64,000 nucleotides of DNA. Source: Phreatobacter sp. (GTDB taxonomy: Bacteria; Pseudomonadota; Alphaproteobacteria; Rhizobiales; Phreatobacteraceae). The position numbers and the translations under genes are program-made. This document shows, in pieces, positions 7,449-24,807 of this stretch; the stretch's first letter is position 1, and each line of letters begins with the position of its first letter. Where the stretch lies: NCBI RefSeq assembly GCF_022843985.1, contig NZ_JALHMP010000001.1, positions 1 to 64,000 on the forward strand, read 5' to 3'. A model generated the notes under the pieces. The model was not told where the DNA came from. It saw only the letters and a list, made by a program, of their open reading frames with translations, and searched no databases.

Positions 7449-7700
7449 ATGAACATTCAGATTCGAGAGATCATCGCACGCGCAGTGGAACTGCCGGGTG
7501 GTGTCGGTGACCTGGTCGACACCAGCGATCTCTACGAGGCCGGAATGACCTCGTTCGGATCGGTCCAGCTCATGCTGGCGCTCGAGGAAGCCTTCGACGT
7601 CGAGTTTCCCGAGCGGATGCTGAACCGCCGGCTCTTCTCCTCCATCGCCACGATCCGCGCTGCTCTCGAAGAGCTGCGTTCCGAGAGCGTCGGGGGCTGA
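7449..7700 (+). CDS. Acyl carrier protein-like (putative aminoacyl carrier protein)
   Basis: This is an 83-aa four-helix carrier protein. The phosphopantetheine site reads GMTSFGSV: by alignment with the canonical D-S-L, Ser35 would carry the 4'-phosphopantetheine arm and the usual Asp is Thr34. The following helix (LMLALEEAFDVEFPE) is typical of acyl carrier proteins. The context argues against fatty-acid synthesis: it is followed 2 bases later by a flavoprotein gene and then by a seryl-tRNA-synthetase-like amino acid:[carrier protein] ligase, whose cognate carrier it most likely is. The ATG at 7449 gives the normal length. Confidence 0.87.
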   Translation: MNIQIREIIARAVELPGGVGDLVDTSDLYEAGMTSFGSVQLMLALEEAFDVEFPERMLNRRLFSSIATIRAALEELRSESVGG

Positions 7701-7702
7701 TC

Positions 7703-8896
7703 ATGCTCGACAGGTCGGAACCCCGGAGCGTGCCGCAAGGCACTGATTTCGCCGCCCGCAGCAAGCGCGTTGCGCAGGTGGCCGCGTCCCATGCGGATGG
7801 GGTGGACCGTGAGGGCCGCTTCCCCCACGAGGCCGTGGCGGCCATGCGCGAGGCGCGCCTGCTCGGCATGATGATTCCGACCCATCTCGGTGGCGAAGGC
7901 GCCGATTTCGCCGATGTCGCGAGGGTCTGCACCACGATCGGAGCCGCCTGCTCGGCGTCGGGCATGATCTTCGCGATGCACCAGATCAAGACGTCGAGCC
8001 TCGTCCATCACGGGCTGGACAGCGACTGGCACCGTGCCTTCATGGTCAGGCTTGCCGGAGATCAGCTGCTCCTCGCCTCGGCGACGACGGAAGGCGGCAT
8101 CGGCGGCGACCTGCGCAACTCGATCTGCTCCATCGTGCCCGAGGGCGACATGGTGCGGCTGGAGAAGGACGCGACCGTCATTTCCTACGGGCTGGATGCC
8201 GACGCGATCCTGGCGACCGCCCGCCGCGCACCGGATGCCGCCTCCTCCGACCAGGTCATGGTCGTGATCGAGAAGGCGCAGGCGAGCCTCGAACAGACCT
8301 CGGTCTGGGACACGCTCGGCATGCGCGGCACCACCTCGCACGGCTTCAAGCTGGCGGCCACCGTGCCGGCCGCGCAGGTCTTCCCGAAACCCTTCGCGGA
8401 GATCGCCGCCCAGTCCATGCTGGCGAGCTCGCATCTGTTCTGGGCGTCGCTGTGGTTCGGCATTGCCGGCTCGGCCCTGTCCAAGGCGCAGGCGAGCGTG
8501 CGCGCCGCTGCCCGCCGCATGCCGAACGCCGTCCCGCCGGGCGCCGCCCGTCTCGCTGCCGCCGCCGCTGAACTCGCGGCGCTGAAGACCATCGTCCGCG
8601 ACGGCATCAGCCGCTTCGAGGTGGCGCGCCACGACGAGGCGGCGATCAATTCCATGGCCTTCGCCGTGGCCATGAATGCGGTGAAGATCGAGGCCTCGCG
8701 CCGCGCCGTCGCCATCGTCCAGGAGGCGCTGACCATCGTCGGCATCCAGGGCTACAAGAACGACAATCCCTTCTCAATCGGCCGCCAGCTGCGCGACATC
8801 CTGTCGGCGCCGCTGATGATCGCCAATGACCGAATCCTCGCCAACACCGCGACCATGCTCCTCATGTCGCGTCTCGACACCGATCTGGAGGACTGA
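7703..8896 (+). CDS. Acyl-CoA dehydrogenase family flavoprotein
   Basis: This 397-aa protein has the three-part acyl-CoA dehydrogenase layout: N-terminal helical domain, middle beta domain (ATTEGGIGGD near residue 130; DTLGMRGTTSHG near residue 210) and a C-terminal helical domain ending near GRQLRDILSAPLMIANDRI. The usual catalytic Glu before a Gly in the last motif is not obvious (IANDRI instead), so the chemistry may differ. In pyrrole biosynthesis, homologues (PltE/RedW type) oxidise an aminoacyl group held on a carrier protein. The gene's place between a carrier protein and an aa:CP ligase suggests a similar aminoacyl-thioester substrate here (inference). Confidence 0.88.
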   Translation: MLDRSEPRSVPQGTDFAARSKRVAQVAASHADGVDREGRFPHEAVAAMREARLLGMMIPTHLGGEGADFADVARVCTTIGAACSASGMIFAMHQIKTSSLVHHGLDSDWHRAFMVRLAGDQLLLASATTEGGIGGDLRNSICSIVPEGDMVRLEKDATVISYGLDADAILATARRAPDAASSDQVMVVIEKAQASLEQTSVWDTLGMRGTTSHGFKLAATVPAAQVFPKPFAEIAAQSMLASSHLFWASLWFGIAGSALSKAQASVRAAARRMPNAVPPGAARLAAAAAELAALKTIVRDGISRFEVARHDEAAINSMAFAVAMNAVKIEASRRAVAIVQEALTIVGIQGYKNDNPFSIGRQLRDILSAPLMIANDRILANTATMLLMSRLDTDLED

Positions 8897-8899
8897 GAC

Positions 8900-9817
8900 A
8901 TGCTCGCCAAGACCGAGACCGCGACCTTCCTCGACGAACTCTTCGACCAGGGCCTGCTCATCGAAACCGGCGTCGACGGCCTCTATGGCCGCTCCGGCCT
9001 GTTCGAGGCCATCGGCGACGGGTTCCAGAACCTCGTCACCCGCTATGGCGGTGCCGACGATCCCGAGGTGGTGCGTTTCCCGCCCGCCATGTCGCGCCAG
9101 GTCTTCGAGAAGTCCGGCTACATGAAGAGCTTCCCCCAGCTCGCCGGCACGGTGCACTGCTTCTGCGGCAACCCGGCCGACCATGTCAGCCTGCTGCAGA
9201 CGATCGAGCAGGGCGGCGACTGGACCGACGGGCAGAAGGCGAGCGAGATCGTGCTGACGCCCGCCGCTTGCTACCCGCTCTACCCGACGGCGGCGAAGCG
9301 CGGCACCCTGCCGGCCGAGGGTCGCCTGTTCGACCTGATGTCCTACTGCTTCCGCCACGAGCCCTCGAAGGACCCGGCGCGCCAGCAGTTCTTCCGGATG
9401 CGCGAATTCGTCCGCATGGGCACGCCGGATCAGGTCACCGAGTTCCGCGCCGCCTGGCTGGAACGCGGCCAGGCGATGATCGGCGAACTCGGCCTGCCCT
9501 TCATGGTCGACGTCGCCAACGATCCGTTCTTCGGCCGGGCAGGCAAGATGCTGGCCGTCAACCAGCGCGACCAGCGCCTGAAATTCGAGCTCCTCATCGC
9601 CATTGAAAGCGAGGAGAAGCCGACGGCCTGCCTGTCGTTCAACTATCACCAGGATCATTTCGGCAAGACCTTCGGCCTGACGACGGCGGGCGACGAGGTC
9701 GCGCATACGGCCTGCGTCGGCTTCGGTCATGAGCGGGTCATCCTCGCCCTGTTGAAGCATTACGGCACCAACGTGAAGCGCTGGCCAGCCTCGGTGCGCC
9801 AGTCGCTGGGGCTTTGA
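8900..9817 (+). CDS. Amino acid:[carrier protein] ligase (SerRS-like, lacks tRNA-binding arm)
   Basis: This 305-aa class II synthetase-like protein corresponds to the catalytic core of atypical (archaeal-type, Zn-dependent) SerRS without the N-terminal tRNA-binding domain. Motif 2 is FRHEP (151-155) with the following segment; motif 3 is near VGFGHERV (273-280). Cys124, Glu169 and Cys272 match, with a uniform offset of 7, the Zn ligands I recall for Bradyrhizobium Bll0957 (Cys131, Glu176, Cys279). Those enzymes activate Gly or Ala with ATP and load it on the phosphopantetheine of a dedicated carrier protein. A true serS is at 2283-3572, so this one is not needed for tRNA charging. It starts 3 bases after the dehydrogenase stop. 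Confidence 0.92.
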
Positions 9818-9820
9818 ACC

Positions 9821-10834
9821 ATGGCGGCGATCTTTCCCCAGCTCTCGGCGGCGACCTACCGGCGCCACGGCCTGCATGATGCCGGCCGGGCCTGGCCGGA
9901 AACCAACTGCCATACCGATCTCTTCATCGAGCTCCTGCACACGCTCGGCCGCGAGCCCGCGGCGGCCCTCGGCATGACCCTCGCGCAGGATTTCGAGGGC
10001 GACCAGTTCACCTTCTTCAAGATCCCCAACGGCGATCTCGACGCCCTGTTCGGGCTCGACCTGCAGGAGCTGTCGATCTACCGGCCGCTGGTCGACCATC
10101 TTGAGGAGCAGGTCGCCCGCGGCCGTATCGTCCTCATCGAGGTCGACGCGCATTTCCTGCCCGACACCCAGGGCGTGACCTACCGCACCGACCATTCCAA
10201 GACGACGATCGCGGTGAACCGCTTCGATCGCGCGGCATCCAGCCTCGGCTATTTCCACAATGCCGGCTATTTCGAGATGGAAGGCGCCGACGTCGCGCAT
10301 CTCCTCGGCTTCGGCGCCGTGCCGGCGCCACTCCTGCCCCCCTATGCGGAATTCGTGAAGGTGGTCGGCCCGGGCCTTTCGGGTCGGGCCCTGAAGGAGG
10401 CCGCCCTCGCCCGCCTTGCGGCGCATTGGGCCCGCCGGCCGGCGGGCAACCCGGTGCGCGCCTACCGGGCGGCGCTGCAGCGCCATCTCGACTGGCTGGC
10501 GACGCAGCCGCCCTGCTCCTTCCACCCCTATGCCTTCAACACCGCCCGCCAGTTCGGCGCCAATGTCGCTTTGCTGGGCGACCACCTCGCCTGGCTCCGT
10601 GGCCAGGGCGTCACCGGCCTCGACGGTGCGGTTGCGACATGCGACGCCATGGCGAACGGCATGAAGACCTTCCAGTTCCTGCTTGCCCGCGCCCTGGCGC
10701 GCAAGAAGACCGAAGCCCTCGCCGCGGCGCTGGACGAGACCGCAGCGCTCTACGACCGGCTCATGGCGGAACTGGCCGAGGCCCTGCGCTTTCCCATGGC
10801 CGAAACCCGGACGCTCGTCCGGGCCGCCTCCTGA
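9821..10834 (+). CDS. DUF1839 family protein (possible aminoacyl transferase)
   Basis: This 337-aa protein of the DUF1839 family has no established function that I know. The N-terminal half carries a conserved-looking ETNCHTDLF segment (Cys30) and EVDAHFLPD / YRTDHSKTT segments (Asp109, His125). The spacing recalls papain-like or BtrH-type Cys/His enzymes; BtrH moves an aminoacyl-type group from a carrier protein to an acceptor. The C-terminal half is helical. Given its place 3 bases after the aa:CP ligase, a transferase acting on the loaded carrier protein is a reasonable but untested inference. Confidence 0.8.
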   Translation: MAAIFPQLSAATYRRHGLHDAGRAWPETNCHTDLFIELLHTLGREPAAALGMTLAQDFEGDQFTFFKIPNGDLDALFGLDLQELSIYRPLVDHLEEQVARGRIVLIEVDAHFLPDTQGVTYRTDHSKTTIAVNRFDRAASSLGYFHNAGYFEMEGADVAHLLGFGAVPAPLLPPYAEFVKVVGPGLSGRALKEAALARLAAHWARRPAGNPVRAYRAALQRHLDWLATQPPCSFHPYAFNTARQFGANVALLGDHLAWLRGQGVTGLDGAVATCDAMANGMKTFQFLLARALARKKTEALAAALDETAALYDRLMAELAEALRFPMAETRTLVRAAS

Positions 10835-10841
10835 GGCTCAG

Positions 10842-13304
10842 ATGGATCCGACCTGCAGCGACATGGACGACGACGTCGTCCCGCTCGATGCGGGCTGGAT
10901 GCTGGCTATCATGGCGCCGGGGACAAAGGTCTCGCCGGCCGAGGCCGAGTCCAGCGGCGACTGGATCGAGGCCGCTGTGCCCGGAACGGCGGAAGCGGCG
11001 CTGATCGCCGCCGGCCGCCTCGTGCCCGGCACGTCCTCGGGCCTGCATGACCGCGACGTCTGGTATCGCTGCAGCTTCACCACCGCGGGGCCGGCGACGG
11101 TCGGCTTCGAAGGCCTCGCCGGACCGGCCGACATCTTCCTCGACGATGCGCTGGTGCTGGAAGTCCGCTCGATGTTCGCGGCGCATTCCTGCGCCATCGC
11201 CGCGGCCGGCCATCATCGGCTCGCCATCCGCTTTCATGCCCTCAACCAGGTGCTCGCCAGTGCCAAGGGTCCGCGGCAACGCTGGCGGCCACAGATGATC
11301 CAGCCCGGGGCGCTGCGGCTGGTGCGCACCACGCCGCTCGGCCATATGCCGGGCTGGTCGCCCGCAGTCGCCATCGTCGGCCCCTGGCAACCGGTGACGC
11401 TGCGCCATGGCGTCGGCCGGGGTCCGGTCGACGTCAGGCTCGCGGCGCGCCTCGATGGCAGCGCGGGTGTGCTCGATGTCGCCCTGCGCCTCGGGGGGCC
11501 CGCGGCCTCGCGGGTTGATATCCTCTGCGCCGGCCATGCCCAGAGGCTGGAGCCGGGCGAAGACGGCCTTCATTCAGGACGGCTGGTGCTGCCGGGGATC
11601 GCTCCCTGGTGGCCTCACACCCACGGAGAACCGGCCCTTCACCCCGTCCAGCTTCGCATCGGCGAGCGGCTGTTCCAATGCGGGTCCGTCGGCTTTCGGA
11701 GCCTCGCCCTCGACCGGGGTCCTGACGGCAAGGATTTTGCGCTCGTCGTCAATGGTGAGCGCATCTTCTGCCGCGGCGCCTGCTGGATGCCGCCGGATCC
11801 GGTCTCGCCGGGTGGCGGCGATCCGGTCCCCCTGCTGACACTGGCACGCGATGCCGGCATGAACATGATCCGCCTCTCGGGGACGGCGACGCCGGAGAGC
11901 CGCGCCTTTCACGCGGCCTGCGACCGGCTTGGCATCCTCGTCTGGCACGACCTGCCCTTCGCCAATTTCGACTATCCGGGCGACGATCCCGCCTTCCGGA
12001 CCGCCGTCGCGGCTGAAACCCGCTCGCTGCTCGGCCGGCTGCAGGGCTCGCCCTCGCTCGCCGTCGTCTGCGGCGGCAGCGAGATCGCCCAGCAGGCGGC
12101 GATGCTCGGCCTCAGGCCCGAGCAGGCCACCATGCCGCTGTTCGAGGAGGTGCTGGCGGCGGTCTCGGCCGCGGTGGCCCCACAGGCGATCTACCTGCCG
12201 CACACACCCTGGGGCGGCCCCCTGCCCTTCGTCACCGATGAAGGCGTCACCCATTATTTCGGCGTCGGGGCCTATTGCCGGCCGATCGAGGACGCGCGGC
12301 GCGCCGATGTGCGCTTCGCCTCGGAATGCCTCGCCTTCGCCAATATCCCGGCCCCGGCGACGCTCGCGCGAGAGGGTCTCGCCTCCCCGCAGGCGGCCGG
12401 ATGGCAGGATGGCGTGCCCCGCGACGCCGGCGCATCCTGGGATTTCGAGGGGGTGCGCGACCATTATGTCCGCACCCTGTTCGCCGTCGATCCCGTGGCG
12501 CTGCGACACGAAGATCCGGACCGCTATCTCGCCCTCGGCCGGGCCGCACCCGCCGAGCTGATGGAAGCCGTCTTCGCCGAATGGCGCCGCGCCGGTTCCC
12601 GCTGCGGCGGCGGCCTCGTCTGGTTTCTCAACGACATGAAGCCGGGCAGCGGATGGGGCGTGATCGACCGGCTCGGGCAGCCGAAGACGACCTGGCATGC
12701 ATTGCAGCGCGCCTTCCGGCCGATCCATCTCGGCCTCACCGACGAGGGGCTCAACGGACTCGCAATCCACCTCGGCAACGAGACGCCGACGGCAAGGCGC
12801 GTGCGGCTGACGCTGGCGACCTATGGCGAGGGTGCCCATCCGCTTATGCGCGGCGAGACCACCATGGACCTCGCGCCGCGCTCGCAGATGAGCCTGTCCA
12901 GTTTCGCACTGGCCGGGCGGTTCTTCGACACGGCCCATGCCTATCGCTTCGGGCCTCTCGCCCACGATGCGACCCTTGCCCGCCTCATCGACGCCGAGAC
13001 CGGGACGCTCCTGGCGGAGGCCTGCCACTGTATCGTGGGCCGAGCCGCCACACCCGGAGACATCGGTCTTGCGGTGCAGCCGGTGATCCTGGACGGCCGC
13101 CCGGCCCTCTCCATCACGACCGGCCGCCTGGCTCGCTTCGTCACCATCGACCATGCAGGGTTTCGTGCCGCTGACGAGGGTTTCAGCCTGGCACCGGGCG
13201 AAGCACGCGTGGTCGCGCTCCTTGGCGGACATGGTGACGCCCTCCCCCATGGCACCGTCTCGGCGCTGAACAGTCACCCCGTGCCCTACGAGTTCGCATC
13301 ATGA
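10842..13304 (+). CDS. Glycoside hydrolase family 2 (beta-mannosidase-like) protein
   Basis: This 820-aa protein has GH2 architecture: an N-terminal jelly-roll sugar-binding region (about 20-190), an Ig-like domain, a TIM barrel (about 300-620) and a C-terminal beta region. Likely catalytic residues are Glu414 in CGGSE (acid/base; the family usually has Asn before this Glu) and Glu495 in FASECLAF (nucleophile). WFLNDMKPGSGWG near residue 600 is typical of the mannosidase branch. There is no signal peptide, so it acts in the cytoplasm. The chosen ATG (10842) follows the DUF1839 stop by 7 bases. Its end overlaps the next gene by ATGA. It may act on a glycan or sugar-containing product of this operon; hydrolysis or a binding-only role are both possible. 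Confidence 0.82.
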   Translation: MDPTCSDMDDDVVPLDAGWMLAIMAPGTKVSPAEAESSGDWIEAAVPGTAEAALIAAGRLVPGTSSGLHDRDVWYRCSFTTAGPATVGFEGLAGPADIFLDDALVLEVRSMFAAHSCAIAAAGHHRLAIRFHALNQVLASAKGPRQRWRPQMIQPGALRLVRTTPLGHMPGWSPAVAIVGPWQPVTLRHGVGRGPVDVRLAARLDGSAGVLDVALRLGGPAASRVDILCAGHAQRLEPGEDGLHSGRLVLPGIAPWWPHTHGEPALHPVQLRIGERLFQCGSVGFRSLALDRGPDGKDFALVVNGERIFCRGACWMPPDPVSPGGGDPVPLLTLARDAGMNMIRLSGTATPESRAFHAACDRLGILVWHDLPFANFDYPGDDPAFRTAVAAETRSLLGRLQGSPSLAVVCGGSEIAQQAAMLGLRPEQATMPLFEEVLAAVSAAVAPQAIYLPHTPWGGPLPFVTDEGVTHYFGVGAYCRPIEDARRADVRFASECLAFANIPAPATLAREGLASPQAAGWQDGVPRDAGASWDFEGVRDHYVRTLFAVDPVALRHEDPDRYLALGRAAPAELMEAVFAEWRRAGSRCGGGLVWFLNDMKPGSGWGVIDRLGQPKTTWHALQRAFRPIHLGLTDEGLNGLAIHLGNETPTARRVRLTLATYGEGAHPLMRGETTMDLAPRSQMSLSSFALAGRFFDTAHAYRFGPLAHDATLARLIDAETGTLLAEACHCIVGRAATPGDIGLAVQPVILDGRPALSITTGRLARFVTIDHAGFRAADEGFSLAPGEARVVALLGGHGDALPHGTVSALNSHPVPYEFAS

Positions 13305-15007
13305 TCCCGGTTACGTTCAACGGACTGCTGGGCAAGCTCCATCTGCCGCCCCAAGGCAGGTCCTCGGGCCTCGGCGTCGTCATCGTGCCGCCGCACGGGG
13401 TCGAGGCCCTGGCGGCGACCAAGACGCTGCGGCGAATGGCAGAGGGCCTGGCCGCGGCTGGCCATGCCGCCTTGCGCTTCGATCTCCCGGGTACGGCCGA
13501 TTCCCTCGGCGTCGATACGGATCCCGATCGCGTCGCCGCCTGGGTCGCCGCGACAGGCGACGCGGCGGCCGTCCTGGCGCGTCATGCGGGAGTTGGTGGG
13601 GTCGTCTATGCCGGCCTGCGCTTCGGTGCCACCATCGCCGCGATGGCGGCAGCGGATCGCTCCGACCTTGCCGGGCTGATTCTGCTCGATCCCGTCGTGA
13701 AGGGCCGACTCTATGCGCGCGAGCTCGCCATGACGGCCCGTGCTCTCGCCGAGGGAGCGCGGCTCGACCCGGACGCGACTGCCACGGAAGCCGGCCTGTC
13801 GATCGCCGGGCTGACCACCTCGGCCGAAACCCTGGAGGCGATGCGTGGCATCGACCTGCAGCGACTGACGGTCCCGGGAGCGCCCGTCCTTCTTCTGTCG
13901 CGCAAGGGGGCGGCCGATGCGCGCCAACTCGCCGGCGCCTGGGCAACCGGCATGGTCACGGCGGCCGAGGTCAAGGGTTTCGAGGCGATTTCCCTCAGCC
14001 CCACCATGGCCGCCACCCCCACGCAGATCCTTGCCGATACGGTGGCTTGGATGAACGGGCTTTCCGGCAAGGACACTGTCCTTCCCGTCCGCCCCCCTCC
14101 GGCCGTGCTGGCCGGACCGTACTTCCGCGAGGAGGGACTGGTCTTTGGCGAGGCGCAGCGCCTGTTCGGTGTGCTCTGTGAGCCCGCAACGGCGGCGCCC
14201 GGCCGCCCGGTTCTGTTGATCGTCAATGCCGGCCGCAATTCCCATGTCGGCTGGGCAAGGTCCGGCGTCCAGCTGGCGCGCGAACTGGCTGACCAGGGCA
14301 TCGCCTCTCTGCGCATGGACCTCGCCGGCATCGGCGATGCCGGCGACCGGCCCGGCAGCCCGGACAGCCTCGACAGCGTCCTCTACAACAAGGCCAACGA
14401 GGCACAGGTCCGCGATGCGGTCGATCTGCTCGCCGGTCGCGGCTATGGCGACGTGACCCTCCTCGGCGCCTGCAGCGGCGCCTATCTGGCGCTGCACCAG
14501 GCGACGCGCGACGAACGGATCGGCGGGCTCATCATCGTCAACATCCAGCGTTTCGTCTGGCGACCCGGCGAGAGCGTCGAGGAAGCGATCGCCTCTGCCT
14601 ATCCGCTGGCGGCCAGCTATGCCGCGAAGGTCTTCGAAGCACGCGCCTGGCGGCGCCTGCTGACCGGCGAGCGCCAGATCGGGCCGCTGATCCGGGCCTT
14701 CAGCAAGCGCGCCACCGACCGTCTGAGGGCGCTGCGCCCGAGCGAGGAGACGCGGCAGGCGCGGGCGATCATGCGCCGGCTCAGCGAGAGACGTATCCCG
14801 GTGGACATCATCTTCAGCGAGAACGATGCGGGGCTTGGCGACCTCGCGCTGCATTTCGGCTCCGGCGGGCGGTGGCTTGCCGGCCAGGATAATATCCAGC
14901 TGACGATCCTCCCGCAGGCCGACCACGACCTGACGCCGCCTGCGGCGAGGGACATCCTGATCGCCCATGCCGCCGCCACCGCCAAGCGAGGTCGGATCGC
15001 GTCCTGA
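13301..15007 (+). CDS. Tandem alpha/beta hydrolase (two fused domains)
   Basis: This 568-aa protein contains two alpha/beta-hydrolase domains. In domain 1 (about 1-255) the nucleophile elbow reads GLRFGA, with Arg107 where Ser is expected, so it is probably inactive. In domain 2 (about 270-565) the elbow reads GACSGA: Cys391 occupies the nucleophile position, with a likely acid in ENDAGLGD and a likely catalytic His in QADHDLTP. The two halves resemble the separate hydrolase 2 and hydrolase 1 proteins of exosortase/EPS loci. A Cys nucleophile would suit acyl or thioester transfer. It is the last gene of the operon, and the EPS genes begin 112 bases later. Confidence 0.83.
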   Translation: MIPVTFNGLLGKLHLPPQGRSSGLGVVIVPPHGVEALAATKTLRRMAEGLAAAGHAALRFDLPGTADSLGVDTDPDRVAAWVAATGDAAAVLARHAGVGGVVYAGLRFGATIAAMAAADRSDLAGLILLDPVVKGRLYARELAMTARALAEGARLDPDATATEAGLSIAGLTTSAETLEAMRGIDLQRLTVPGAPVLLLSRKGAADARQLAGAWATGMVTAAEVKGFEAISLSPTMAATPTQILADTVAWMNGLSGKDTVLPVRPPPAVLAGPYFREEGLVFGEAQRLFGVLCEPATAAPGRPVLLIVNAGRNSHVGWARSGVQLARELADQGIASLRMDLAGIGDAGDRPGSPDSLDSVLYNKANEAQVRDAVDLLAGRGYGDVTLLGACSGAYLALHQATRDERIGGLIIVNIQRFVWRPGESVEEAIASAYPLAASYAAKVFEARAWRRLLTGERQIGPLIRAFSKRATDRLRALRPSEETRQARAIMRRLSERRIPVDIIFSENDAGLGDLALHFGSGGRWLAGQDNIQLTILPQADHDLTPPAARDILIAHAAATAKRGRIAS

Positions 15008-15119: not shown

Positions 15120-16562
15120 ATGACTCTGAAACAGCTGGACTTTTCGGCAGATGTCGTCGCCCGTCGCGGCCGAGGCGGCTATGCCTGGATGCGGCTCGCG
15201 CTGAAGCTGTCCACGGCGGCGGTCGACTGGCTGATGATCGCGCTGACGAGCTATGTGACGTCTCTGCTCTACAGCCGTATCGCCAGCGGCGAGTGGTGGA
15301 CCACACCCTCACAGGCGACGCTCGCCATGCTTGTCGCCAGCACCTTCGTCATGCTCAGCGCGGTGCGGAGCCAGTACCAGATCGGGAATTACATCGGCGC
15401 GCGACGTGCCTTCGGCACCACCCTGACGCTGTGGGCGGCCACCTTTGTCAGCCTGATCGCCTTCGCCTTCGCCACCAAGACGACCGATGCGTTCTCCCGC
15501 GTGGCGGTGATCCTGACCTTCGTGGTCGGCCTGCCGGTGGTTTTCGTCACCCGCGAACTGACGGGACGGCTGTTGACGCTCGGCTCCAAGTTCGGCGTCA
15601 TTCCAGCCCGGCGGGTCATGCTGGTCGGCCACGAGGATGATGTCACGGATTTCGCCCGGCGCTACCAGCCATGGAATGCAGGCATGCATATCGCCGGCAC
15701 TGGCCTGCTCTCTCCGGGCGACGGTCCGGTCGGCCGCGATGACATCGCCCGCATCGCCGGGCAGGCGCGCGAGATGCAACTCGACGACGTGCTGATCATC
15801 GTACCCTGGTCCCAGACCGAAACCATCGACAGGCTGGTGGACGGGTTCATGCGCATCCCCGTCACCATCCATCTGGGACCGGAGCGGATCTTCGACCGGT
15901 TTCAGGACGTTCACATCGCCAAATCCGGCGGCATTGCCAGCCTGCAGCTCGGCCGTCCGCCGCTGACCGCCGGCGAGGTGATGGCCAAGCGCGCCCTCGA
16001 TGTGGTGCTCGGCTCCTTCGCGCTGTTCCTGCTGACGCCAGTCCTCATCCTCATCGCCATCGCCATCAAGCTCGACAGTCCGGGGCCGGTCCTGTTCATG
16101 CAGCGGCGGCTTGGCTTCAACCAGCAGGCGTTCCAGATCGTCAAGTTCCGCACAATGACCGTCATGGACGATGGCGACGTGGTCCGCCAGGCGACGCGCA
16201 ACGACCAGCGGATCACCCGGGTCGGCCGTGTCCTCAGGCGCCTGAATCTCGACGAGCTGCCGCAGCTTCTCAATGTGCTGGCGGGCCAGATGTCGCTGGT
16301 CGGACCACGTCCGCATGCCATCGCCCATGACCGGGAGTTCGACCAGCGGATCGCTCTCTATGCGCGGCGCCACAACGTCAAACCGGGCATTACCGGCTGG
16401 GCGCAGGTCCATGGGCTCCGCGGCGAGACCGACACCGACGAGAAGATGAAGGCGCGGGTCGAGCACGACCTCTTCTACATCGACAACTGGTCGATCCTGC
16501 TTGATGTCGAAATCCTGTTCCGAACGGTCTTCTCCCGCAAGGCCTACGACAACGCCTTCTGA
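15120..16562 (+). CDS. WcaJ-type polyprenyl-phosphate hexose-1-phosphate transferase
   Basis: This 480-aa membrane enzyme would start a polysaccharide repeat unit by moving a sugar phosphate from a UDP-sugar to undecaprenyl phosphate. It has four N-terminal membrane helices (about 25-165), a central Rossmann-like domain (RRVMLVGHEDD), then the catalytic domain from about residue 290: a re-entrant helix (KRALDVVLGSFALFLL), KFRTM, LNLDELPQLLNVL with its Asp-Glu pair, LVGPRPHA and KPGITGWAQV. All hallmarks are intact. It opens the EPS locus. The sugar is unpredictable; glucose is usual. Confidence 0.95.
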   Translation: MTLKQLDFSADVVARRGRGGYAWMRLALKLSTAAVDWLMIALTSYVTSLLYSRIASGEWWTTPSQATLAMLVASTFVMLSAVRSQYQIGNYIGARRAFGTTLTLWAATFVSLIAFAFATKTTDAFSRVAVILTFVVGLPVVFVTRELTGRLLTLGSKFGVIPARRVMLVGHEDDVTDFARRYQPWNAGMHIAGTGLLSPGDGPVGRDDIARIAGQAREMQLDDVLIIVPWSQTETIDRLVDGFMRIPVTIHLGPERIFDRFQDVHIAKSGGIASLQLGRPPLTAGEVMAKRALDVVLGSFALFLLTPVLILIAIAIKLDSPGPVLFMQRRLGFNQQAFQIVKFRTMTVMDDGDVVRQATRNDQRITRVGRVLRRLNLDELPQLLNVLAGQMSLVGPRPHAIAHDREFDQRIALYARRHNVKPGITGWAQVHGLRGETDTDEKMKARVEHDLFYIDNWSILLDVEILFRTVFSRKAYDNAF

Positions 16563-16672: not shown

Positions 16673-17731
16673 TCAGGCCGCCATGACCTGGTCGACGGCC
16701 GCCAGCGCATCGCGCCAGGACGCAGCGACGTCGAGGCGGGCGCCATGGCGCGGCAGGGCCGTCGCCTCCTCGACCGCTGCCGCGACCGCGTCCACTGTCG
16801 CATGCAGTGGTACCAGCCGGAGCTGGCCGCCGGCGAGCAGACGCTGGTAGGTGGGGTGGTGGTCAAAGGCGCCCGGTCGTTCCGGCGCATTGACGACCAC
16901 GGGACGGCCAGACATGGCACAGGCGAGCACGCTGCCGCGCCGGCTGGTCAGGCCCTCGGCGAAGAGATAGGCGAAGACGTCGACCTCGGCGAAGAGCGCG
17001 AAGAGATCGGCATCGCTCGCGACATAGCCGGTGACAAGGACGCGGTCGGCGATCCCGAGGCTGTCCGCCCGTGCCCTGAACTCGTCCTCGACCCGGTCCT
17101 GGCCCTTGACGAAAGAGCCGATGAAGACCGCGAACGGGTCCTCGCCGCGCTGCTTCAGCGCCGCCGTCAGGTCGAGGATCTGCGTCGACTGCTTGCGCGG
17201 ATAGATGGAGCCGAAGTGGCCGAGTACGAGCTGTCCGCCGCGACGCGCCTCGGCGAGGCGGCGGGCCGTCGCGTTCATCGGCAGGGTGTCCGGAGCAACC
17301 ACGTTGGGCGGGATCGGAACGATGCCGCGCCGGCGCGGCGCGAGGCGCGACAACGGATCTGCGGCCAGCTGGTCGGCGACCTCGGGCGAGGAGACCAGGA
17401 CGGCGGTGGCGAATGGCAGCAGCGGCGCGTAGCTGGCGCGGCGTTTCCAGTCGAGATCGGCCCATTCGTGCAGGATGACAAGCACGGGCCGGCCCTGCGC
17501 CCTGGCTTTGGCGGCGGCGAGGACCGGATCGGCAAGCCGGCGTTTCCAGGCGACCACCGGAAGGTTGATCACCAGGACGCCGTCGCCGCGCCCATGGCCG
17601 AGCTGGCGCAACGCGGCCCGGTCACCGGCGGTCGCGGCCAGCCTGCGGGCGAAGGCCTCCACGCCGCAGGGTGTCTCGGTGTCGGAGACGAGAATGTCGA
17701 GCCGGGCCTGTCCGCGGTCAGTCAGCGACAT
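16673..17731 (-). CDS. GT4-family glycosyltransferase
   Basis: This 352-aa retaining glycosyltransferase has a GT-B fold. The donor-binding half contains LGHFGSIYPRKQ, VLVTGYV and the C-terminal EGLTSRRGSVLACAMSGRPVVVN segment typical of GT4. No signal or membrane helix. Its start overlaps the end of the polymerase gene by 14 bases, so the three minus-strand genes GT2-polymerase-GT4 form one unit within the EPS locus. Sugar specificity unknown. Confidence 0.88.
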   Translation of the reverse strand: MSLTDRGQARLDILVSDTETPCGVEAFARRLAATAGDRAALRQLGHGRGDGVLVINLPVVAWKRRLADPVLAAAKARAQGRPVLVILHEWADLDWKRRASYAPLLPFATAVLVSSPEVADQLAADPLSRLAPRRRGIVPIPPNVVAPDTLPMNATARRLAEARRGGQLVLGHFGSIYPRKQSTQILDLTAALKQRGEDPFAVFIGSFVKGQDRVEDEFRARADSLGIADRVLVTGYVASDADLFALFAEVDVFAYLFAEGLTSRRGSVLACAMSGRPVVVNAPERPGAFDHHPTYQRLLAGGQLRLVPLHATVDAVAAAVEEATALPRHGARLDVAASWRDALAAVDQVMAA

Positions 17732-19034
17732 GAGGGCGCCTCGCCAGAAAATGCAGTCCGAAGACCGCGAACAGGAAAGTGATCCAGATCGGGTCGAAAC
17801 GGACGAAAAGGAAGCTCTCCAGCACGGACAAATAAATCCCGAACAGCCAGATCTGCATCAGCATCAGCAGGAGCGCCGGATCGGCGCCTCTGGCGCGGGC
17901 GGCGAGAAAGTTTCGCAGCGGCCAGACCACGAAGACCGCCACGACCAGCACGAGACCGGGGATGCCCATGTTGAGCGCCGCATCGATATAGCCGTTATGG
18001 GCATGGGCCGCGAGACCGCCCCACTGGGTGCTATCCTCCTGGCCGAAGCGCGTCGATTCCAGCGCCCAATAGGCGGAATAGCCGAAGCCGGTCAGCGGCC
18101 GTTCGCGGATCCGGTCGAGGGCGAGTTCCCACACGTCGGCGCGGCCGGTGAAGGTGGCATCGACCGGCAGCATGCGGACGATGCCGGCGATCGCGTCGCT
18201 GACGACGGTGCCGGGCCCGAGGATCAGAAGAACTGCCAGCGGGGTGAAGGCGACGACGCCGGCCCGCCAACCGCTCCGGATGCGGCAGACCGCCAACGAG
18301 ACCAGCAGGCTGACCACCAGGAGCATGGTCGAGCTCTTGGCCCCCGACATCAGCACGATGAGCAAGCAGAGCACGAGGAGCACGGATCCGCCCGGCACAA
18401 GGCCGGTGCGGATCGCGAAGATCATCATGAAGATGGTCATCGCGAAGATCGCGCCCGCCGTGTTCTTGTGCGCGAAGACGCCGCGCCAGTCGCCGGCGAG
18501 CTGGGGTTCGTTGATGTCGGAAAGCTGGTGGACGGCATATTCGGGAAAGAGCGCGATGCCGACCAGCGAGAGTGCGACGAGAACGCCCACCGCGACCATC
18601 AGCAGTCCCGCGAGATCGCGCCGGCCCTTCGGCATCAGGAAGAGCGATGCGGTCAGCGCGGCGATCAGGCCGAACAGGATGAAGCGTCGCAGCGACAGCG
18701 AAAAATCCGCCGAGGTGAGAACCGTGAAGGACAGCCAGGCCGCGAGCGCGATCCACAGCGGATGGATCAGCGTCGCCACGGCCCTGGGCTGCGTCAGGAT
18801 CGCGATGACGGCGGCGATGCCTGCGAGGATTCCATAGGCCGCATAGGCGGTGCCCTCCTGGCCGAAGGCGAATTCCAGCGAGGCGTTGTTGCCGAGGTCC
18901 GCATAGGGCTCCAGCGTCACCCAGGCGAGCAGGAACGCACCGACGAAGACAAGCACCCGCGCCCAGCGCATCAGCTGGGCCAGATCGTCCGACGGCAGGC
19001 TGCGTGCCGAACCGGTGTCCGCGGCAGTGGTCAT
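17718..19034 (-). CDS. O-antigen ligase/Wzy-like polysaccharide polymerase
   Basis: This 438-aa integral membrane protein has about 11-12 hydrophobic helices and a large periplasmic loop containing RERPLTGFGYSAYW and AHAHNGYID, the H-N-x-Y signature of the Wzy_C (O-antigen ligase/polymerase) family. In an EPS locus with no lipopolysaccharide core genes, a polymerase role is more likely than a ligase role. The ATG overlaps the stop of the upstream GT2 gene (ATGA); an upstream extension of the frame would lie inside GT2 and was not used. Confidence 0.9.
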   Translation of the reverse strand: MTTAADTGSARSLPSDDLAQLMRWARVLVFVGAFLLAWVTLEPYADLGNNASLEFAFGQEGTAYAAYGILAGIAAVIAILTQPRAVATLIHPLWIALAAWLSFTVLTSADFSLSLRRFILFGLIAALTASLFLMPKGRRDLAGLLMVAVGVLVALSLVGIALFPEYAVHQLSDINEPQLAGDWRGVFAHKNTAGAIFAMTIFMMIFAIRTGLVPGGSVLLVLCLLIVLMSGAKSSTMLLVVSLLVSLAVCRIRSGWRAGVVAFTPLAVLLILGPGTVVSDAIAGIVRMLPVDATFTGRADVWELALDRIRERPLTGFGYSAYWALESTRFGQEDSTQWGGLAAHAHNGYIDAALNMGIPGLVLVVAVFVVWPLRNFLAARARGADPALLLMLMQIWLFGIYLSVLESFLFVRFDPIWITFLFAVFGLHFLARRPHVAD

Positions 19035-20029
19035 GAGGCGTTTCCTGCCCTGTAGGGCTGCTGCTCGACGCCGGCCCAGGCGGCGATGCGGCCGGCCGAG
19101 ACGGCGAGCGGATGGGCGGCGACGACGGGGTTGCCGGTGCGGATGAGCGTCCCGACCGAACGCAGCACTGCGAGCGGCACGATCGCCATGTCCTTGGCGA
19201 TGATCCTGAGACGTCCGGAGAGGCCTGGCGCATGTTTCAGGTCGACGGCCCGGTTGATGGAGCCGATCCGCATGCCCCGCCGCAGCACCCAGGCGATGCG
19301 CGCCCGATCGGCCGGCACGGTTTCGGTGATCAGTGCCTCCTGGACCCAGAAGGCGCGCAGCCCGGCCCGGCGGCAGCGGGTGAAGAAATCCATGTCGCCG
19401 CCGCCGAGAAAATTGAAGCGGGGATCGAGCGGCCGGTGCCCCAGCCGGTCGAAGACCCGCCGACGCATCAGGCAATTGCCGGTGCCATAGATCATCGGAA
19501 CCGGACCCGAACGGTTATGGCTCGGCCAGAAGACCGGATGGCGGGCGAGCAGGCGCGGCGCGTCCTCGCGGAAGCGCGGCACGACGGGGCCGCCGACGAC
19601 GTCGGCATCTTGTCCCTCGGCAGCGGCGACCATGGCGTCCAGCCAGCCGGGAGACGCGACCTCGTCGTCATCAATCATCAGGATGTGGTCAGCCCGCGGG
19701 AAGGCCGCCATGGCGCGGGCGAAGCCGGCATTGATCGCGTGGACATTGCCCTGCGCGGTCTCGACGAAAGCCAGGCCCTGGAGGCCGCACTCGGCCAGCC
19801 ATTTGCGCGCCACGGCGAGCCCGGCACGGCCGGCCGCGTCGTTCTCCACGACCACCACCGCGAAGGGAACCGCGGTGCGCTGGGCAGCGAGCGAGGCAAG
19901 CGTCTCGGCCAGCATGGCGGGGCGCCGGAAGGTCGGGACGACGACGACGGCCAGCACCGTCTCGGCGATCAGCCCCGGACTCTGGAACAGTTCCGCCCCG
20001 GCGGACGTCTCGCTGCGGGACAGTTCCAT
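19031..20029 (-). CDS. GT2-family glycosyltransferase
   Basis: This 332-aa GT-A glycosyltransferase has VVVPTFRRPAMLAETLASL at the N-terminus, the metal-binding IDDDE motif, FNFLGGGDMDFFTRCRRAG as acceptor-site region, and a weakly hydrophobic C-terminal stretch. Start choice: ATG at 20029; a GTG 8 codons upstream (20053) preceded by GAGG is an alternative. It is first in the minus-strand trio and divergent from the deacetylase gene, sharing a 208-base control region. Confidence 0.9.
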   Translation of the reverse strand: MELSRSETSAGAELFQSPGLIAETVLAVVVVPTFRRPAMLAETLASLAAQRTAVPFAVVVVENDAAGRAGLAVARKWLAECGLQGLAFVETAQGNVHAINAGFARAMAAFPRADHILMIDDDEVASPGWLDAMVAAAEGQDADVVGGPVVPRFREDAPRLLARHPVFWPSHNRSGPVPMIYGTGNCLMRRRVFDRLGHRPLDPRFNFLGGGDMDFFTRCRRAGLRAFWVQEALITETVPADRARIAWVLRRGMRIGSINRAVDLKHAPGLSGRLRIIAKDMAIVPLAVLRSVGTLIRTGNPVVAAHPLAVSAGRIAAWAGVEQQPYRAGNAS

Positions 20030-20237
20030 GGGCACAGTCTCAACCTGGTTCACGATCAAGGCCTCACGCGGGTGCGGACAGGGATGGCTGCCCTCCCGCA
20101 GCAAACCGCTTGCCGCCGGAGGCCCGCCTGCACGCAGCCCTTTGCCAGACTGTGGTGCGGCTCTTGCCAGTCTGCGCCCGTTGAGCCGGTCCAGGGGCGA
20201 CTCTGTCCGGAAACAGGCCAGTTCGCAGGAGGTGGGC

Positions 20238-21080
20238 GTGATCGAGGACAGCCGCAAGGTGGCGACGAATCCCGCGTCGGGGCAACAACGCCCCCAAGAC
20301 AGCCAAGATGCGTCCACCGGATCTGACGACGTCGGCGCTGGCGGCCTGCTCCCGCGCCTCAACCATATGGCCGGTCGGCGCGTGCCGTTCCGCACGGCGA
20401 CCCTCGGCCTCGACCAGCCGGTTCTGTCCGTCACCTTCGACGACTTCCCGCAATCGGCCTTCGATCCCGGTGCACGTATTCTCGACGACCACGGGGTCCG
20501 CGGCACCTTCTACGCCGCGTCCGGCCTGTTCGGGCAAACGAACAGCCGCTGGACGGTCGCCGGGGCGGACAAGGTCGCCGCTCTCCACGCGCGCGGCCAT
20601 GAGATCGGGCTGCATGGCCACGCCCACAAGCCTGCCAACAGGATGCGGACCGCGGCCTTCGCTGCCGATCTCGCCGCCAACCGGGCAGCCTTGCGGCGCA
20701 TTGTTCCAGGTCTGACGCGCGAGAACTACGCGTTTCCATACGGTCTTTGTGGCCTGATGCAGAAGAGACACCTGGCCGCGACGGTCAGAACCTGCCGCTC
20801 GGTCCAGCCGGGGGTCAATGCCGGACGCATGGACCTTGACTTCATCAAGGCCGTCGAGGTCAGCGTCCGCGGGCTCACAGCCGACAATCTGGAGAGCTGG
20901 CTGGACGCCGCCGAGGCCGCCAAAGGCTGGCTTGTCCTCTTTACCCACGACGTCTGCGACGCGCCCAGTCCCTATGGCACGACCCAAAAGGTGCTTGCCC
21001 GCGTCGTCGCCCGGGCCCTCGAGCGGCGCTTTGCCGTCCTGCCCGTCGATGCGGCGCTGGACCGGGCCGGTATCGCCTGA
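20238..21080 (+). CDS. Polysaccharide deacetylase (NodB-domain) family protein
   Basis: This 280-aa protein has a NodB homology domain: TFDDFP (catalytic and metal Asp pair) near residue 66, HGHAHKP carrying the two metal His, the YAFPYG motif and a late FTHDV. It would remove N- or O-acetyl groups from the polysaccharide. No signal peptide is visible, which is unusual for an exopolysaccharide deacetylase and points to cytoplasmic action on lipid-linked intermediates or an unrecognised export route. The start is a GTG, decided by an AGGAGG at 20227-20232, five bases upstream. Confidence 0.88.
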   Translation: MIEDSRKVATNPASGQQRPQDSQDASTGSDDVGAGGLLPRLNHMAGRRVPFRTATLGLDQPVLSVTFDDFPQSAFDPGARILDDHGVRGTFYAASGLFGQTNSRWTVAGADKVAALHARGHEIGLHGHAHKPANRMRTAAFAADLAANRAALRRIVPGLTRENYAFPYGLCGLMQKRHLAATVRTCRSVQPGVNAGRMDLDFIKAVEVSVRGLTADNLESWLDAAEAAKGWLVLFTHDVCDAPSPYGTTQKVLARVVARALERRFAVLPVDAALDRAGIA

Positions 21081-21203
21081 ATCGATACAGCCCCCGGTGG
21101 TCCCGTCCTTGCGGAGCAACAGCACGAACGCAGTCCCGTGTTCCATTCCGGGACGCCTCACCCGCCGAGGCGATCCCGGACAGGCCCCAGAAAGGACCCG
21201 ACC

Positions 21204-22694
21204 GTGTATGACGATGGTCGCCCCGAACGCCGCGATCCGCCGATTCAGGCGCCTGCAGCAGGCGCTCCGCTGTCCTCAACCGGTCTGGTCGCCGCCATTC
21301 TTCCGCACTGGCTCTCGATCCTGCTTCTCGCATTGGTCGGCACCGGGATCGGCTATGCCACCTCGCGCATGATGACGCCGCGCTTCATGGCGACCGCGCA
21401 GATCTTCGTTGATCCCCGCGGAATCCAGGTCTTCGACAACGAACTGACGCCGCGCCAGCAGGATTCCAACGCGGCGATCAACTTCGTCGAGAGCCAGGCG
21501 CGGATCGTCACGTCGCAAAGCGTGCTGTCGCGCGTCATCGACAGCGAGCGGCTGACCGACGACCCCGAGTTCAACGGCCAGGGTGGCGCATCCTGGGCCG
21601 TCAGCCTGCTCCGCTCGTTCGGCCTGCGCCAGGCCAGCGAGGAAAGCCTGCAGAACCGCGAGCGGCATGCGCTCAACGCCCTCTACGACCGTGTTGTCGT
21701 GCGGCGTCCCGAGCGGACCTTCGTCATCGAGGTGACGGTGCGCGCGGCCGATGGCGAAAAGGCCGCCCGGCTCGCCAATGCGGTGTCCCATGCCTATATC
21801 GACAGCCAGACAGCCGCCCGTGCGGATGCGGCACGCCGTGCCACCCAGTCCCTGACCAACCGTCTCGACGAATTGCGCAGCCGCGTCCGGACCGCCGAGG
21901 AGCGGGCGGAGGATTTCCGCCGCCGCAACGGCCTCGTCGGCACGCGCACGCAGCTCGTCAGCGAGCAGCAGCTGACGGATGCCAACAGCCAGCTCGCCCA
22001 GGCGCAGGCACGGGTGGCCGAAGCCCAGGCGCGCAGCGAGCAGATCCAGACGTCGCTGCGAACCGCCAGCCAGGCCGGCGCCCTGCCGGAGGCCGTGATG
22101 TCCCCGACGATCGCCGCCCTGCGCGGTCAGCAGGCCGAGGCGCGCCGCCGCCTCGCCGACGCCCAGACGGAGTTCGGCCCGCGCCACCCCACCGTTCGCA
22201 ACGCCCAGGCCCAGGTGAGCGATCTCGACCGCGCCATCGCCGACGAACTCGGCCGTATTGCCCAGGCCGCCCGCGCCGATCTCGACCGTTCCCGCGCTGC
22301 GGAGCTGACCCAGCGCCGGACTGTCGAGCAGTTGACCTCGCTCGCCTCGGAAGCCGGACAGGCCTTCGTCCAGTTGCGCGAGCTGCAGCGCGAGGTCGAC
22401 GTCAACCGCAACCTGCTCAACGCCTTCCTGGCGCGGTCCCGTGAGACCAGCGAGCTGGAGCGGCTCGACACCAGCAATGCGCGGATCATCACCGTGGCCC
22501 AGCCGCCGCGGGACCGTGTCTTCCCGCCGCGTGGCGTGGTCATGGCCTTTGCCGGCTTCGTGGTCGGCGCCGGCCTCGGCGTCGGCCTCGCGCTCCTGCT
22601 GGTCCTCCTCAAGGGGGGCAGCGGCCAGCCGGCATCGGTCACGGTCGCCCGCCAGTTCACCGCGCGCCGTCCCCTCGCCCGCCTGGTGCATTGA
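21204..22694 (+). CDS. GumC/Wzz-type polysaccharide chain-length determinant
   Basis: This 496-aa inner-membrane polysaccharide co-polymerase has an N-terminal helix (about 30-50), a Wzz domain, a long Ala/Gln/Arg-rich coiled coil in the periplasm (about 205-410) and a C-terminal membrane helix (about 445-470) followed by a short basic tail. There is no Walker A motif, so the tyrosine-kinase module of Wzc is absent. The start is a GTG with AAAGGA seven bases upstream. The next gene starts one base after its stop region, so they are coupled. Confidence 0.9.
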   Translation: MYDDGRPERRDPPIQAPAAGAPLSSTGLVAAILPHWLSILLLALVGTGIGYATSRMMTPRFMATAQIFVDPRGIQVFDNELTPRQQDSNAAINFVESQARIVTSQSVLSRVIDSERLTDDPEFNGQGGASWAVSLLRSFGLRQASEESLQNRERHALNALYDRVVVRRPERTFVIEVTVRAADGEKAARLANAVSHAYIDSQTAARADAARRATQSLTNRLDELRSRVRTAEERAEDFRRRNGLVGTRTQLVSEQQLTDANSQLAQAQARVAEAQARSEQIQTSLRTASQAGALPEAVMSPTIAALRGQQAEARRRLADAQTEFGPRHPTVRNAQAQVSDLDRAIADELGRIAQAARADLDRSRAAELTQRRTVEQLTSLASEAGQAFVQLRELQREVDVNRNLLNAFLARSRETSELERLDTSNARIITVAQPPRDRVFPPRGVVMAFAGFVVGAGLGVGLALLLVLLKGGSGQPASVTVARQFTARRPLARLVH

Positions 22695-22695
22695 G

Positions 22696-23475: not shown

Positions 23476-23480
23476 CACCC

Positions 23481-24743: not shown

Positions 24744-24807
24744 GCCTCCCCCGGGCGCGCCGCCGCGGCCGCCGGTTCATCTCTTCACCACCCAGCGTCC
24801 CGTTTCG

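What the first reader, a model, noticed from the sequence alone, without database searches (positions are those of the whole stretch)
7449..15007. Six-gene aminoacyl-carrier-protein operon fused in position to an exopolysaccharide locus
Seen: carrier protein, acyl-CoA-dehydrogenase-like flavoprotein, SerRS-like aa:CP ligase, DUF1839, GH2 protein and a double hydrolase, on one strand with gaps of at most 7 bases or overlaps, ending 112 bases before the EPS-initiating transferase. Known: aa:CP ligases of Bradyrhizobium and Agrobacterium load Gly or Ala on dedicated carrier proteins, and their pathway end product is not established to my knowledge. Inference: amino acid is loaded, oxidised or otherwise altered on the carrier, then transferred (DUF1839 and/or Cys-hydrolase) to a sugar acceptor, possibly the EPS made next door; the GH2 protein would process the glycan.
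Basis: partly seen in the sequence, partly recalled or inferred. Interest (0 to 1): 0.85.

Follow-up and report, generated by a model that had tools for sequence, protein, structure and literature searches.

The report
Amino-acid-loading operon tied to exopolysaccharide
A conserved six-gene bacterial operon appears to load an amino acid onto a small carrier protein with a recycled tRNA-charging enzyme and to hand it on to a sugar, possibly one destined for the cell's surface slime, which would give an enzyme family of unknown purpose a job.

Summary
The six genes and their spacing are real, in a Phreatobacter-like genome. They are a true unit: in 121 sampled genomes of the order, DUF1839, this GH2 subfamily and the double hydrolase occur in exactly the same 14, all among the 20 with the ligase; the operon also occurs in Azospirillum and betaproteobacteria. 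Two results change the reading. The double hydrolase fuses relatives of exosortase A-associated hydrolases 2 and 1, which follow a carrier protein in exosortase EPS loci; this genome has no exosortase match. The DUF1839 model matches AziU3/U2, CtaG and CcbD; CcbD joins a carrier-bound amino acid to an amino sugar. The "dehydrogenase" lacks the usual Glu. EPS genes are linked in some lineages (9 of 13 order-sample loci, 0 of 20 controls) but in only 5 of 22 plasmid stretches. Best model: a SerRS-derived ligase charges the carrier (Gly or Ala by homology), and DUF1839 transfers the possibly oxidised group to an amino sugar of EPS or another surface glycan. Acceptor and chemistry are inferred.

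The parts
7449..7700 (+). aminoacyl carrier protein (CP); proposed phosphopantetheine site Ser35
   Evidence: NF005480 97.6 bits, PF00550 36.1 bits; best solved chains 4h2w_C 75.3 bits and Atu2571 2jq4 75.2 bits; Ser35 in 80 of 80 aligned rows
7703..8896 (+). ACAD-fold flavoprotein without the usual catalytic Glu; candidate monooxygenase or oxidase acting on the carrier-bound amino acid
   Evidence: PF02771, PF00441 over cut-off; residues 371-377 LMI.NDR conserved, no acid at 371-375; AF2 model matches TdsC/DszC first, KijD3, DnmZ and acyl-CoA dehydrogenases close behind
8900..9817 (+). SerRS-like amino acid:carrier protein ligase
   Evidence: NF005479 489 bits over cut-off 357; 4h2w 333 bits, 3mey 324 bits; C124, E154, C272 in 77 of 77 rows
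9821..10834 (+). DUF1839, papain-like by PMC10318531; proposed aminoacyl-CP:amino-sugar transferase
   Evidence: PF08893 378 bits; model pLDDT 85 matches AziU3/U2, CtaG, CcbD; C30, T128, T129, H146 in 79 of 79 rows
10842..13304 (+). GH2 beta-mannosidase-like protein; no signal peptide evident by eye
   Evidence: beta-mannosidases 7op6/2je8 138 bits, both Glu aligned; E414 in 77 and E495 in 76 of 78 rows, Ser413 before the acid/base in 77 of 78
13301..15007 (+). fusion of relatives of exosortase-associated hydrolase 2 (N half) and hydrolase 1 (C half)
   Evidence: TIGR03101 69.1 bits, TIGR03100 124.1 bits, both below cut-off; Cys391 and His542 in 65 of 65 rows, no Ser at the N-half nucleophile position in 64 of 65
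15120..16562 (+). EPS-initiating undecaprenyl-phosphate sugar transferase (WcaJ type), first gene of the neighbouring EPS locus
   Evidence: TIGR03023 420.9 bits over cut-off 410.75
16673..26235 (.). EPS locus: GT4 (16673-17731 -), Wzy-like (17718-19034 -), GT2 (19031-20029 -), HfsH-like deacetylase (20232-21080 +), chain-length-like protein (21204-22694 +), WecG-type GT (22696-23475 +), unnamed gene (23601-24743 +), HfsF-like flippase (24808-26235 -)
   Evidence: the HfsH, HfsF and chain-length matches are below their curated cut-offs

Best explanation
The operon is a carrier-protein-based pathway that puts an amino-acid-derived group onto a sugar of a surface polysaccharide or of its lipid-linked precursor. 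Step 1 (inferred from characterised homologues): the SerRS-derived ligase adenylates a small amino acid, Gly or Ala, and loads it on the dedicated CP. Step 2 (inferred, weakest): the ACAD-fold flavoprotein oxidises the bound group, perhaps as a monooxygenase. Step 3 (inferred from fold): DUF1839 takes the group onto Cys30 and transfers it to an amino group of an amino sugar, as CcbD does in celesticetin. Step 4 (inferred from context): the hydrolase pair, with one Cys-nucleophile half, proofreads or performs a second acyl transfer near the flippase; the GH2 protein trims faulty or unexported glycan. Shown here: the gene unit, its co-occurrence, the fold match and EPS-type neighbours in several lineages.
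For: DUF1839, GH2 and double hydrolase in the same 14 of 121 genomes, including two where the hydrolase lies away from the operon but about 0.6 kb (G151) and 4 kb (G168) from a glycosyltransferase. DUF1839 fold match; CcbD chemistry from PMC12945683 passages. Hydrolase pair behind a CP in two exosortase EPS loci, L085 and L086. Hydrolase gene calls over 1,000 aa in 33 of 64 loci, flippase domain confirmed in L067. Panel hits in 9 of 13 order-sample loci and 0 of 20 controls. PF00534 glycosyltransferase within 10 kb of the ligase in at least 5 of 10 non-Phreatobacter genomes, 0.065 expected per site. WcaJ-type gene upstream of CP in two Cupriavidus.
Against: No panel hit in 27 of 80 genome loci (some are short contigs), among them all seven titled Agrobacterium, and in 17 of 22 plasmid stretches, the nif-linked ones included. 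Four of the 12 panel queries came from test loci; with the eight window-derived queries alone the rows show at least 4 of 10 non-Phreatobacter order-sample loci, two of them weak (28-29 bits). ABC transporters rather than EPS genes lie near the operon in Agrobacterium genomosp. 13 and two Azospirillum. DUF1839 has no PDB sequence match, the superpositions are loose (rmsd 5.4-7.7) and its assigned triad order differs from CcbD. All three matched enzyme groups are, as far as I recall, metabolite enzymes, not polysaccharide enzymes. No acceptor was identified.
Confidence: 0.45

Rival explanations
1. The operon makes a small diffusible aminoacyl-sugar (lincosamide-like) that is exported; EPS neighbours are incidental or lend their flippase.
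For: Fold relatives AziU3/U2, CtaG and CcbD are natural-product enzymes (CcbD read, the others recalled). ABC transporter nearby in Agrobacterium genomosp. 13 and two Azospirillum. Portable cassette on plasmids, mostly without EPS panel hits: 17 of 22 stretches.
Against: Flippase-hydrolase fusion, WcaJ-type gene beside the operon in Phreatobacter and Cupriavidus, hydrolase beside glycosyltransferases when separated from the operon.
Confidence: 0.26
2. The target is another surface glycan (LPS, lipid-linked oligosaccharide or periplasmic glucan), not secreted EPS.
For: Operon also in genomes without linked EPS genes; GH2 annotated as beta-mannosidase, with ArnT-like and LTA-synthase-like genes within 15 kb, in Mycetohabitans.
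Against: EPS-initiating transferases in Phreatobacter and Cupriavidus, WecG-type, GT and Wzy-like genes in G227.
Confidence: 0.15
3. The amino acid is turned into another acyl group on the CP and esterified to a sugar hydroxyl by the Cys hydrolase half, DUF1839 serving as a relay or editor.
For: Two Cys acyl-transfer candidates in one operon; the hydrolase pair also follows a CP in the exosortase loci of G001 and G039, genomes without a DUF1839 match; G131 has CP, ligase and hydrolase without DUF1839.
Against: DUF1839 resembles an amide-forming enzyme by fold; the hydrolase N half lacks a Ser nucleophile.
Confidence: 0.1
4. It is an ordinary catabolic acyl-CoA dehydrogenase operon placed by chance next to EPS genes.
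For: Annotation names alone.
Against: Exact three-family co-occurrence and dedicated CP and ligase.
Confidence: 0.03

Closest known systems
Amino acid:carrier protein ligases of Bradyrhizobium (Bll0957) with Agrobacterium CP Atu2571
   Same: Ligase over the NF005479 cut-off; CP close to Atu2571; bll0957 and an acd gene bll0958 have consecutive locus tags
   Different: A 2022 review calls the role unknown (PMC9437257 passage). Six order-sample ligase loci without DUF1839 have ACAD but no GH2 or hydrolase in the stretch; G131 is an exception with a hydrolase but no ACAD or GH2 in the stretch
Lincosamide synthetase CcbD; also CtaG and AziU3/U2
   Same: Predicted fold; in CcbD a carrier-bound amino acid is the donor and an amino sugar the acceptor
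   Different: No sequence match; triad given as Cys-(Thr/Ser)-His in PMC10318531; acceptor unknown; EPS-type neighbours in some lineages
Exosortase A (XrtA) EPS systems, TIGR03098/TIGR03100/TIGR03101
   Same: CP followed by hydrolases 2 and 1; linked EPS genes; same odd nucleophile pattern
   Different: AMP-forming ligase replaced by SerRS-like ligase; hydrolases fused and below the curated cut-offs; no exosortase match in G000
Dlt D-alanylation of teichoic acids (recalled)
   Same: Amino acid loaded on a dedicated CP and moved to a surface polymer
   Different: Different ligase family; no DltB-type transferase among the six genes

Membership tests
amino acid:CP ligase | profile score over curated cut-off | tested here: met
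   489 bits against 357
amino acid:CP ligase | Zn ligands Cys-Glu-Cys (roles recalled) | tested here: met
   C124, E154, C272 in 77 of 77 rows; aligned to 4h2w
amino acid:CP ligase | activates Gly or Ala and loads a CP, not tRNA | not testable with these tools
   statement on homologues in a PMC5370406 passage
DUF1839 (PF08893) | Pfam gathering score | tested here: met
   378 bits against 22.5
CcbD/CtaG-type enzymes | fold | tested here: met
   19 chains at E 1.1e-8 to 5.9e-4, query TM 0.50-0.61, rmsd 5.4-7.7
CcbD/CtaG-type enzymes | detectable sequence homology | tested here: not met
   no PDB sequence match at E up to 1 with phmmer
CcbD/CtaG-type enzymes | Cys-His-Glu triad in that order (CcbD) | tested here: inconclusive
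   C30 and H146 invariant in 79 of 79 rows; PMC10318531 assigns Cys-(Thr/Ser)-His; model geometry not inspected
acyl-CoA dehydrogenase | catalytic Glu at the C-terminal position of short-chain enzymes (position recalled) | tested here: not met
   Ile373 there, no acid at 371-375 in the rows. The best sequence match 7p98, itself a dehydrogenase, has Thr at that place, so this does not rule out dehydrogenation; other base positions not tested
GH2 beta-mannosidase | two catalytic Glu | tested here: met
exosortase A system | exosortase in the genome | tested here: not met
   no PF09721 match in G000; 2 of 13 cassette genomes searched have one, on another contig (G182) or about 3 Mb away (G198)
exosortase A hydrolases 1 and 2 | score over curated cut-off | tested here: not met
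   124.1 against 168.45 and 69.1 against 202.75

The most novel reading that the evidence does not exclude
A tRNA-synthetase-derived enzyme drives a previously undescribed route of polysaccharide aminoacylation: the amino acid is oxidatively altered on a carrier protein and amide-linked by DUF1839 to an amino sugar of EPS before export, a Gram-negative counterpart of Dlt that spread as a cassette through alpha- and betaproteobacteria, nif plasmids of nodule rhizobia included.
Probability: 0.3. Interest if true: 0.87.

Novelty: new variant of a known kind. Interest (0 to 1): 0.73.

Why it matters
The role of carrier-protein aminoacylation by these synthetase relatives was still called unknown in a 2022 review (PMC9437257, passage). 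If this reading holds, the family makes aminoacylated surface glycans, the question becomes directly testable in rhizobia, and the hydrolase pair of exosortase systems gains a likely shared function in carrier-to-glycan acyl transfer.

Tried and rejected
Considered and rejected: ordinary beta-oxidation operon (dedicated CP and ligase, exact co-occurrence); membership in an exosortase system (no exosortase match in G000); a link to EF-P beta-lysylation, because efp, epmA and an epmB-like gene lie upstream in many Rhizobium loci (F6 and F7 in 53, F8 in 48 loci). They are not among the called or annotated neighbours in the window, L006 and L008, Azospirillum, Mycetohabitans or Caballeronia, so I treat them as neighbours only. 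A comparison of the GNAT proteins of L086 and L008 gave no similarity. Promoter and terminator scans found nothing above shuffles.

Literature: searches for the ligase with SerRS or DUF1839, related terms, ligase with EPS, DUF1839 (1 paper), exosortase with CP, locus tags and papers citing the 2010 ligase paper listed none whose listing describes this pathway; only passages of PMC10318531, PMC10888616, PMC9437257, PMC5370406 and PMC12945683 were read. The library holds CC-licensed PMC papers only. PMC10318531 already suggested from genome context that DUF1839 might process glycans at a cell wall in an acyl-CoA-dependent manner.

Limits: gene calls come from a simple codon-score script; those for L082 and L085 were partly wrong and were re-read. 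Eight of 12 panel queries came from the window and four from test loci. The 14 co-occurring genomes are of 10 genera and not independent; three of the five genomes with a PF00534 gene within 10 kb are of one family. The listing was cut. Alignments for models and searches used chosen subsets: 18 DUF1839, 12 hydrolase, 17 ACAD and 12 GH2 sequences.

Full report
What is there. The window lies in a 4.33-Mb genome held as G000 whose nearest named relatives are Phreatobacter. Six genes on the + strand, 7449-15007, are packed with gaps of 2, 3, 3 and 7 bases and one 4-base overlap; a WcaJ-type EPS-initiating transferase starts 112 bases later. Family scans confirm CP, ACAD-like flavoprotein, amino acid:CP ligase, DUF1839, GH2 and a double alpha/beta hydrolase. 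Downstream genes encode a GT4, a Wzy-like protein, a GT2, an HfsH-like deacetylase, a chain-length-like protein, a WecG-type transferase and an HfsF-like flippase.

A real unit. One scan of genome contigs gave 217 relatives of the ligase, of which the best 80 were kept. CP was found in 80 of 80, ACAD in 78, DUF1839 in 78, GH2 in 77 and the double hydrolase in 64 within the fetched stretch; L010 and L057 have only CP and ligase, and L012 ends inside DUF1839. In an even sample of 121 genomes of the order the ligase exceeds its cut-off in 20 and DUF1839 occurs in 14, all among those 20 and right next to the ligase. The double hydrolase (E up to 1e-30) and the GH2 subfamily (E up to 1e-100) occur in the same 14 and in no other of the 121. 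These are 14 genomes of 10 genera, so not independent. In a class sample of 142 genomes, DUF1839 was found in 1 and the ligase over cut-off in 4; full-length double hydrolases headed the list only in G000 and G131, both ligase carriers. The 19-kb stretch of G131 has CP, ligase and hydrolase, but no ACAD, DUF1839 or GH2 match. In a phylum sample DUF1839 was in 16 of 398 genomes, four of them outside the class and of one family.

Wider spread. On plasmid records DUF1839 matched 59 records, of which I read 22 stretches (scanned). All six genes lie together in Azospirillum lipoferum 4B, Azospirillum B510, A. brasilense Sp7, Mycetohabitans rhizoxinica HKI 454, R. rhizoryzae, Methylobacterium bullatum, Phyllobacterium 628 and Rhizobium NLR16a (8 of 22), with the hydrolase on the other strand in R. 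rhizoryzae and Phyllobacterium and as a 1,103-aa protein in NLR16a. Caballeronia M1242, Shinella WSC3-e, Methylobacterium aquaticum and several Rhizobium plasmids show the first five without a hydrolase in the stretch. Some Rhizobium copies are incomplete or broken (L137-L139, L143, L145). The two Cupriavidus replicons have the parts in another order, with two DUF1839 genes.

The double hydrolase. Its halves match TIGR03101 (69.1 bits, cut-off 202.75) and TIGR03100 (124.1 bits, cut-off 168.45), hydrolases 2 and 1 of exosortase A systems. Two loci from the class sample, L085 and L086, have a CP followed by these two hydrolases as separate genes over cut-off, with the TIGR03098 ligase nearby and an exosortase on the same contig. 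The nucleophile pattern is alike: no Ser in the hydrolase 2 half, Cys in the hydrolase 1 half. G000 has no exosortase match, and 2 of 13 cassette genomes searched have one, unlinked. So the operon shares a part of that system without being one. In 33 of 64 loci the hydrolase gene call exceeds 1,000 aa; in L067 the extra N-terminal part is a Polysacc_synt_3 flippase domain.

DUF1839. An AF2 model from 18 family sequences has mean pLDDT 85. Foldseek against the PDB returned 19 chains at E up to 0.001, all AziU2-U3, CtaG or CcbD, with query TM 0.50-0.61 and rmsd 5.4-7.7. CcbD loads CP-bound proline on its Cys and transfers it to the amino group of a thiooctose (PMC12945683, passages); what CtaG and AziU3/U2 do is recalled. 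C30, T128, T129 and H146 are invariant in 79 of 79 rows. A 2023 classification put DUF1839 in the papain-like superfamily with a Cys-(Thr/Ser)-His triad and suggested glycan processing from genome context (PMC10318531, passages). There is no PDB sequence match, so this is a fold argument only.

The flavoprotein. Sequence search ranks acyl-CoA dehydrogenases first, but where short-chain enzymes carry the catalytic Glu (recalled) this family reads LMI.NDR. The best sequence match, 7p98, has Thr there and is still called a dehydrogenase. The model (pLDDT 83) matches TdsC/DszC monooxygenases best, with KijD3 and DnmZ also high and acyl-CoA dehydrogenases close behind. I lean to an oxygenase or oxidase; the evidence does not decide.

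GH2. The nearest solved relatives are beta-mannosidases; both catalytic Glu align and are conserved, while the residue before the acid/base, Asn in the relative, is Ser in 77 of 78 rows.

EPS linkage. With a 12-query panel, polysaccharide genes were found in 53 of 80 genome loci, 9 of 13 order-sample DUF1839 loci (6 of 10 outside Phreatobacter) and 0 of 20 control segments from five of the same genomes. Four queries came from test loci, so the Rhizobium part of the 53 is circular; with the eight window-derived queries the rows show at least 4 of 10 non-Phreatobacter order-sample loci, two of them weak. A PF00534 glycosyltransferase lies within 10 kb of the ligase in at least 5 of 10 non-Phreatobacter genomes, with 0.065 expected per site, binomial P 1.9e-4 if independent; three of the five are of one family. 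Where the hydrolase is away from the operon (G151, G168), a PF00534 gene lies about 0.6 and 4 kb from it. In Cupriavidus metallidurans CH34 and C. campinensis a WcaJ-type gene lies upstream of CP on the same strand (Pfam-confirmed in CH34). Against: 27 of 80 genome loci had no panel hit, among them all seven titled Agrobacterium, and only 5 of 22 plasmid stretches had one (L135, L136, L140, L142, L147). The six order-sample ligase loci without DUF1839 (L084, L087-L091) have ACAD and ligase but no GH2 or hydrolase, and a panel hit in 1 of 6; L083 of the class sample is like them, with one deacetylase hit.

Mechanism. Shown: gene unit, co-occurrence, fold match, neighbourhood in several lineages. 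Inferred from homologues: Gly or Ala loading (PMC5370406, passage). Inferred: transfer to an amino sugar and the identity of the glycan. The HfsH-like deacetylase in the window could expose amino groups, which is suggestive only. I put 0.45 on transfer to EPS or a related surface polysaccharide precursor and list the rivals with lower weights.

Noticed in passing
L134, L143, L144, L145, L146: In five rhizobial nodule plasmids (R. gallicum IE4872, M101, R602sp; R. acidisoli FH23; Rhizobium sp. C104; host given as Phaseolus vulgaris for four) the cassette follows nif genes, with a short gene annotated as exopolysaccharide production repressor in four of five; the Pfam SyrA match is partial and below cut-off in the three tested. 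ACC deaminase follows in three. No EPS panel hit there.
   Followed up: partly
L143 10971-13481; L145 10971-13453: The GH2 gene appears broken into several open frames in R. acidisoli FH23 and Rhizobium sp. C104; in C104 no ligase is annotated and its match falls in two frames.
   Followed up: no
L067 15681-18992: A 1,103-aa protein joins a Wzx-like flippase domain to the double hydrolase; gene calls of similar size in 33 of 64 loci.
   Followed up: partly
L135, L147: Cupriavidus replicons carry two DUF1839 genes near one operon, one of them beside (L147) or about 3 kb from (L135) the hydrolase.
   Followed up: no
L082 8455-13371: G131 has CP, ligase and double hydrolase with two small frames without Pfam match between them, and TRAP transporter genes around.
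   Followed up: partly
L136 4558-7384 and many Rhizobium loci: efp, epmA and a lysine-2,3-aminomutase-like gene lie just upstream of the cassette.
   Followed up: no
L138 15153-20951: A non-ribosomal peptide synthetase gene lies about 4 kb downstream of a partial cassette on an R. leguminosarum Vaf10 plasmid.
   Followed up: no
window 28604-29860 -: A TMEM43-family protein gene (232.6 bits) beyond the EPS region.
   Followed up: no
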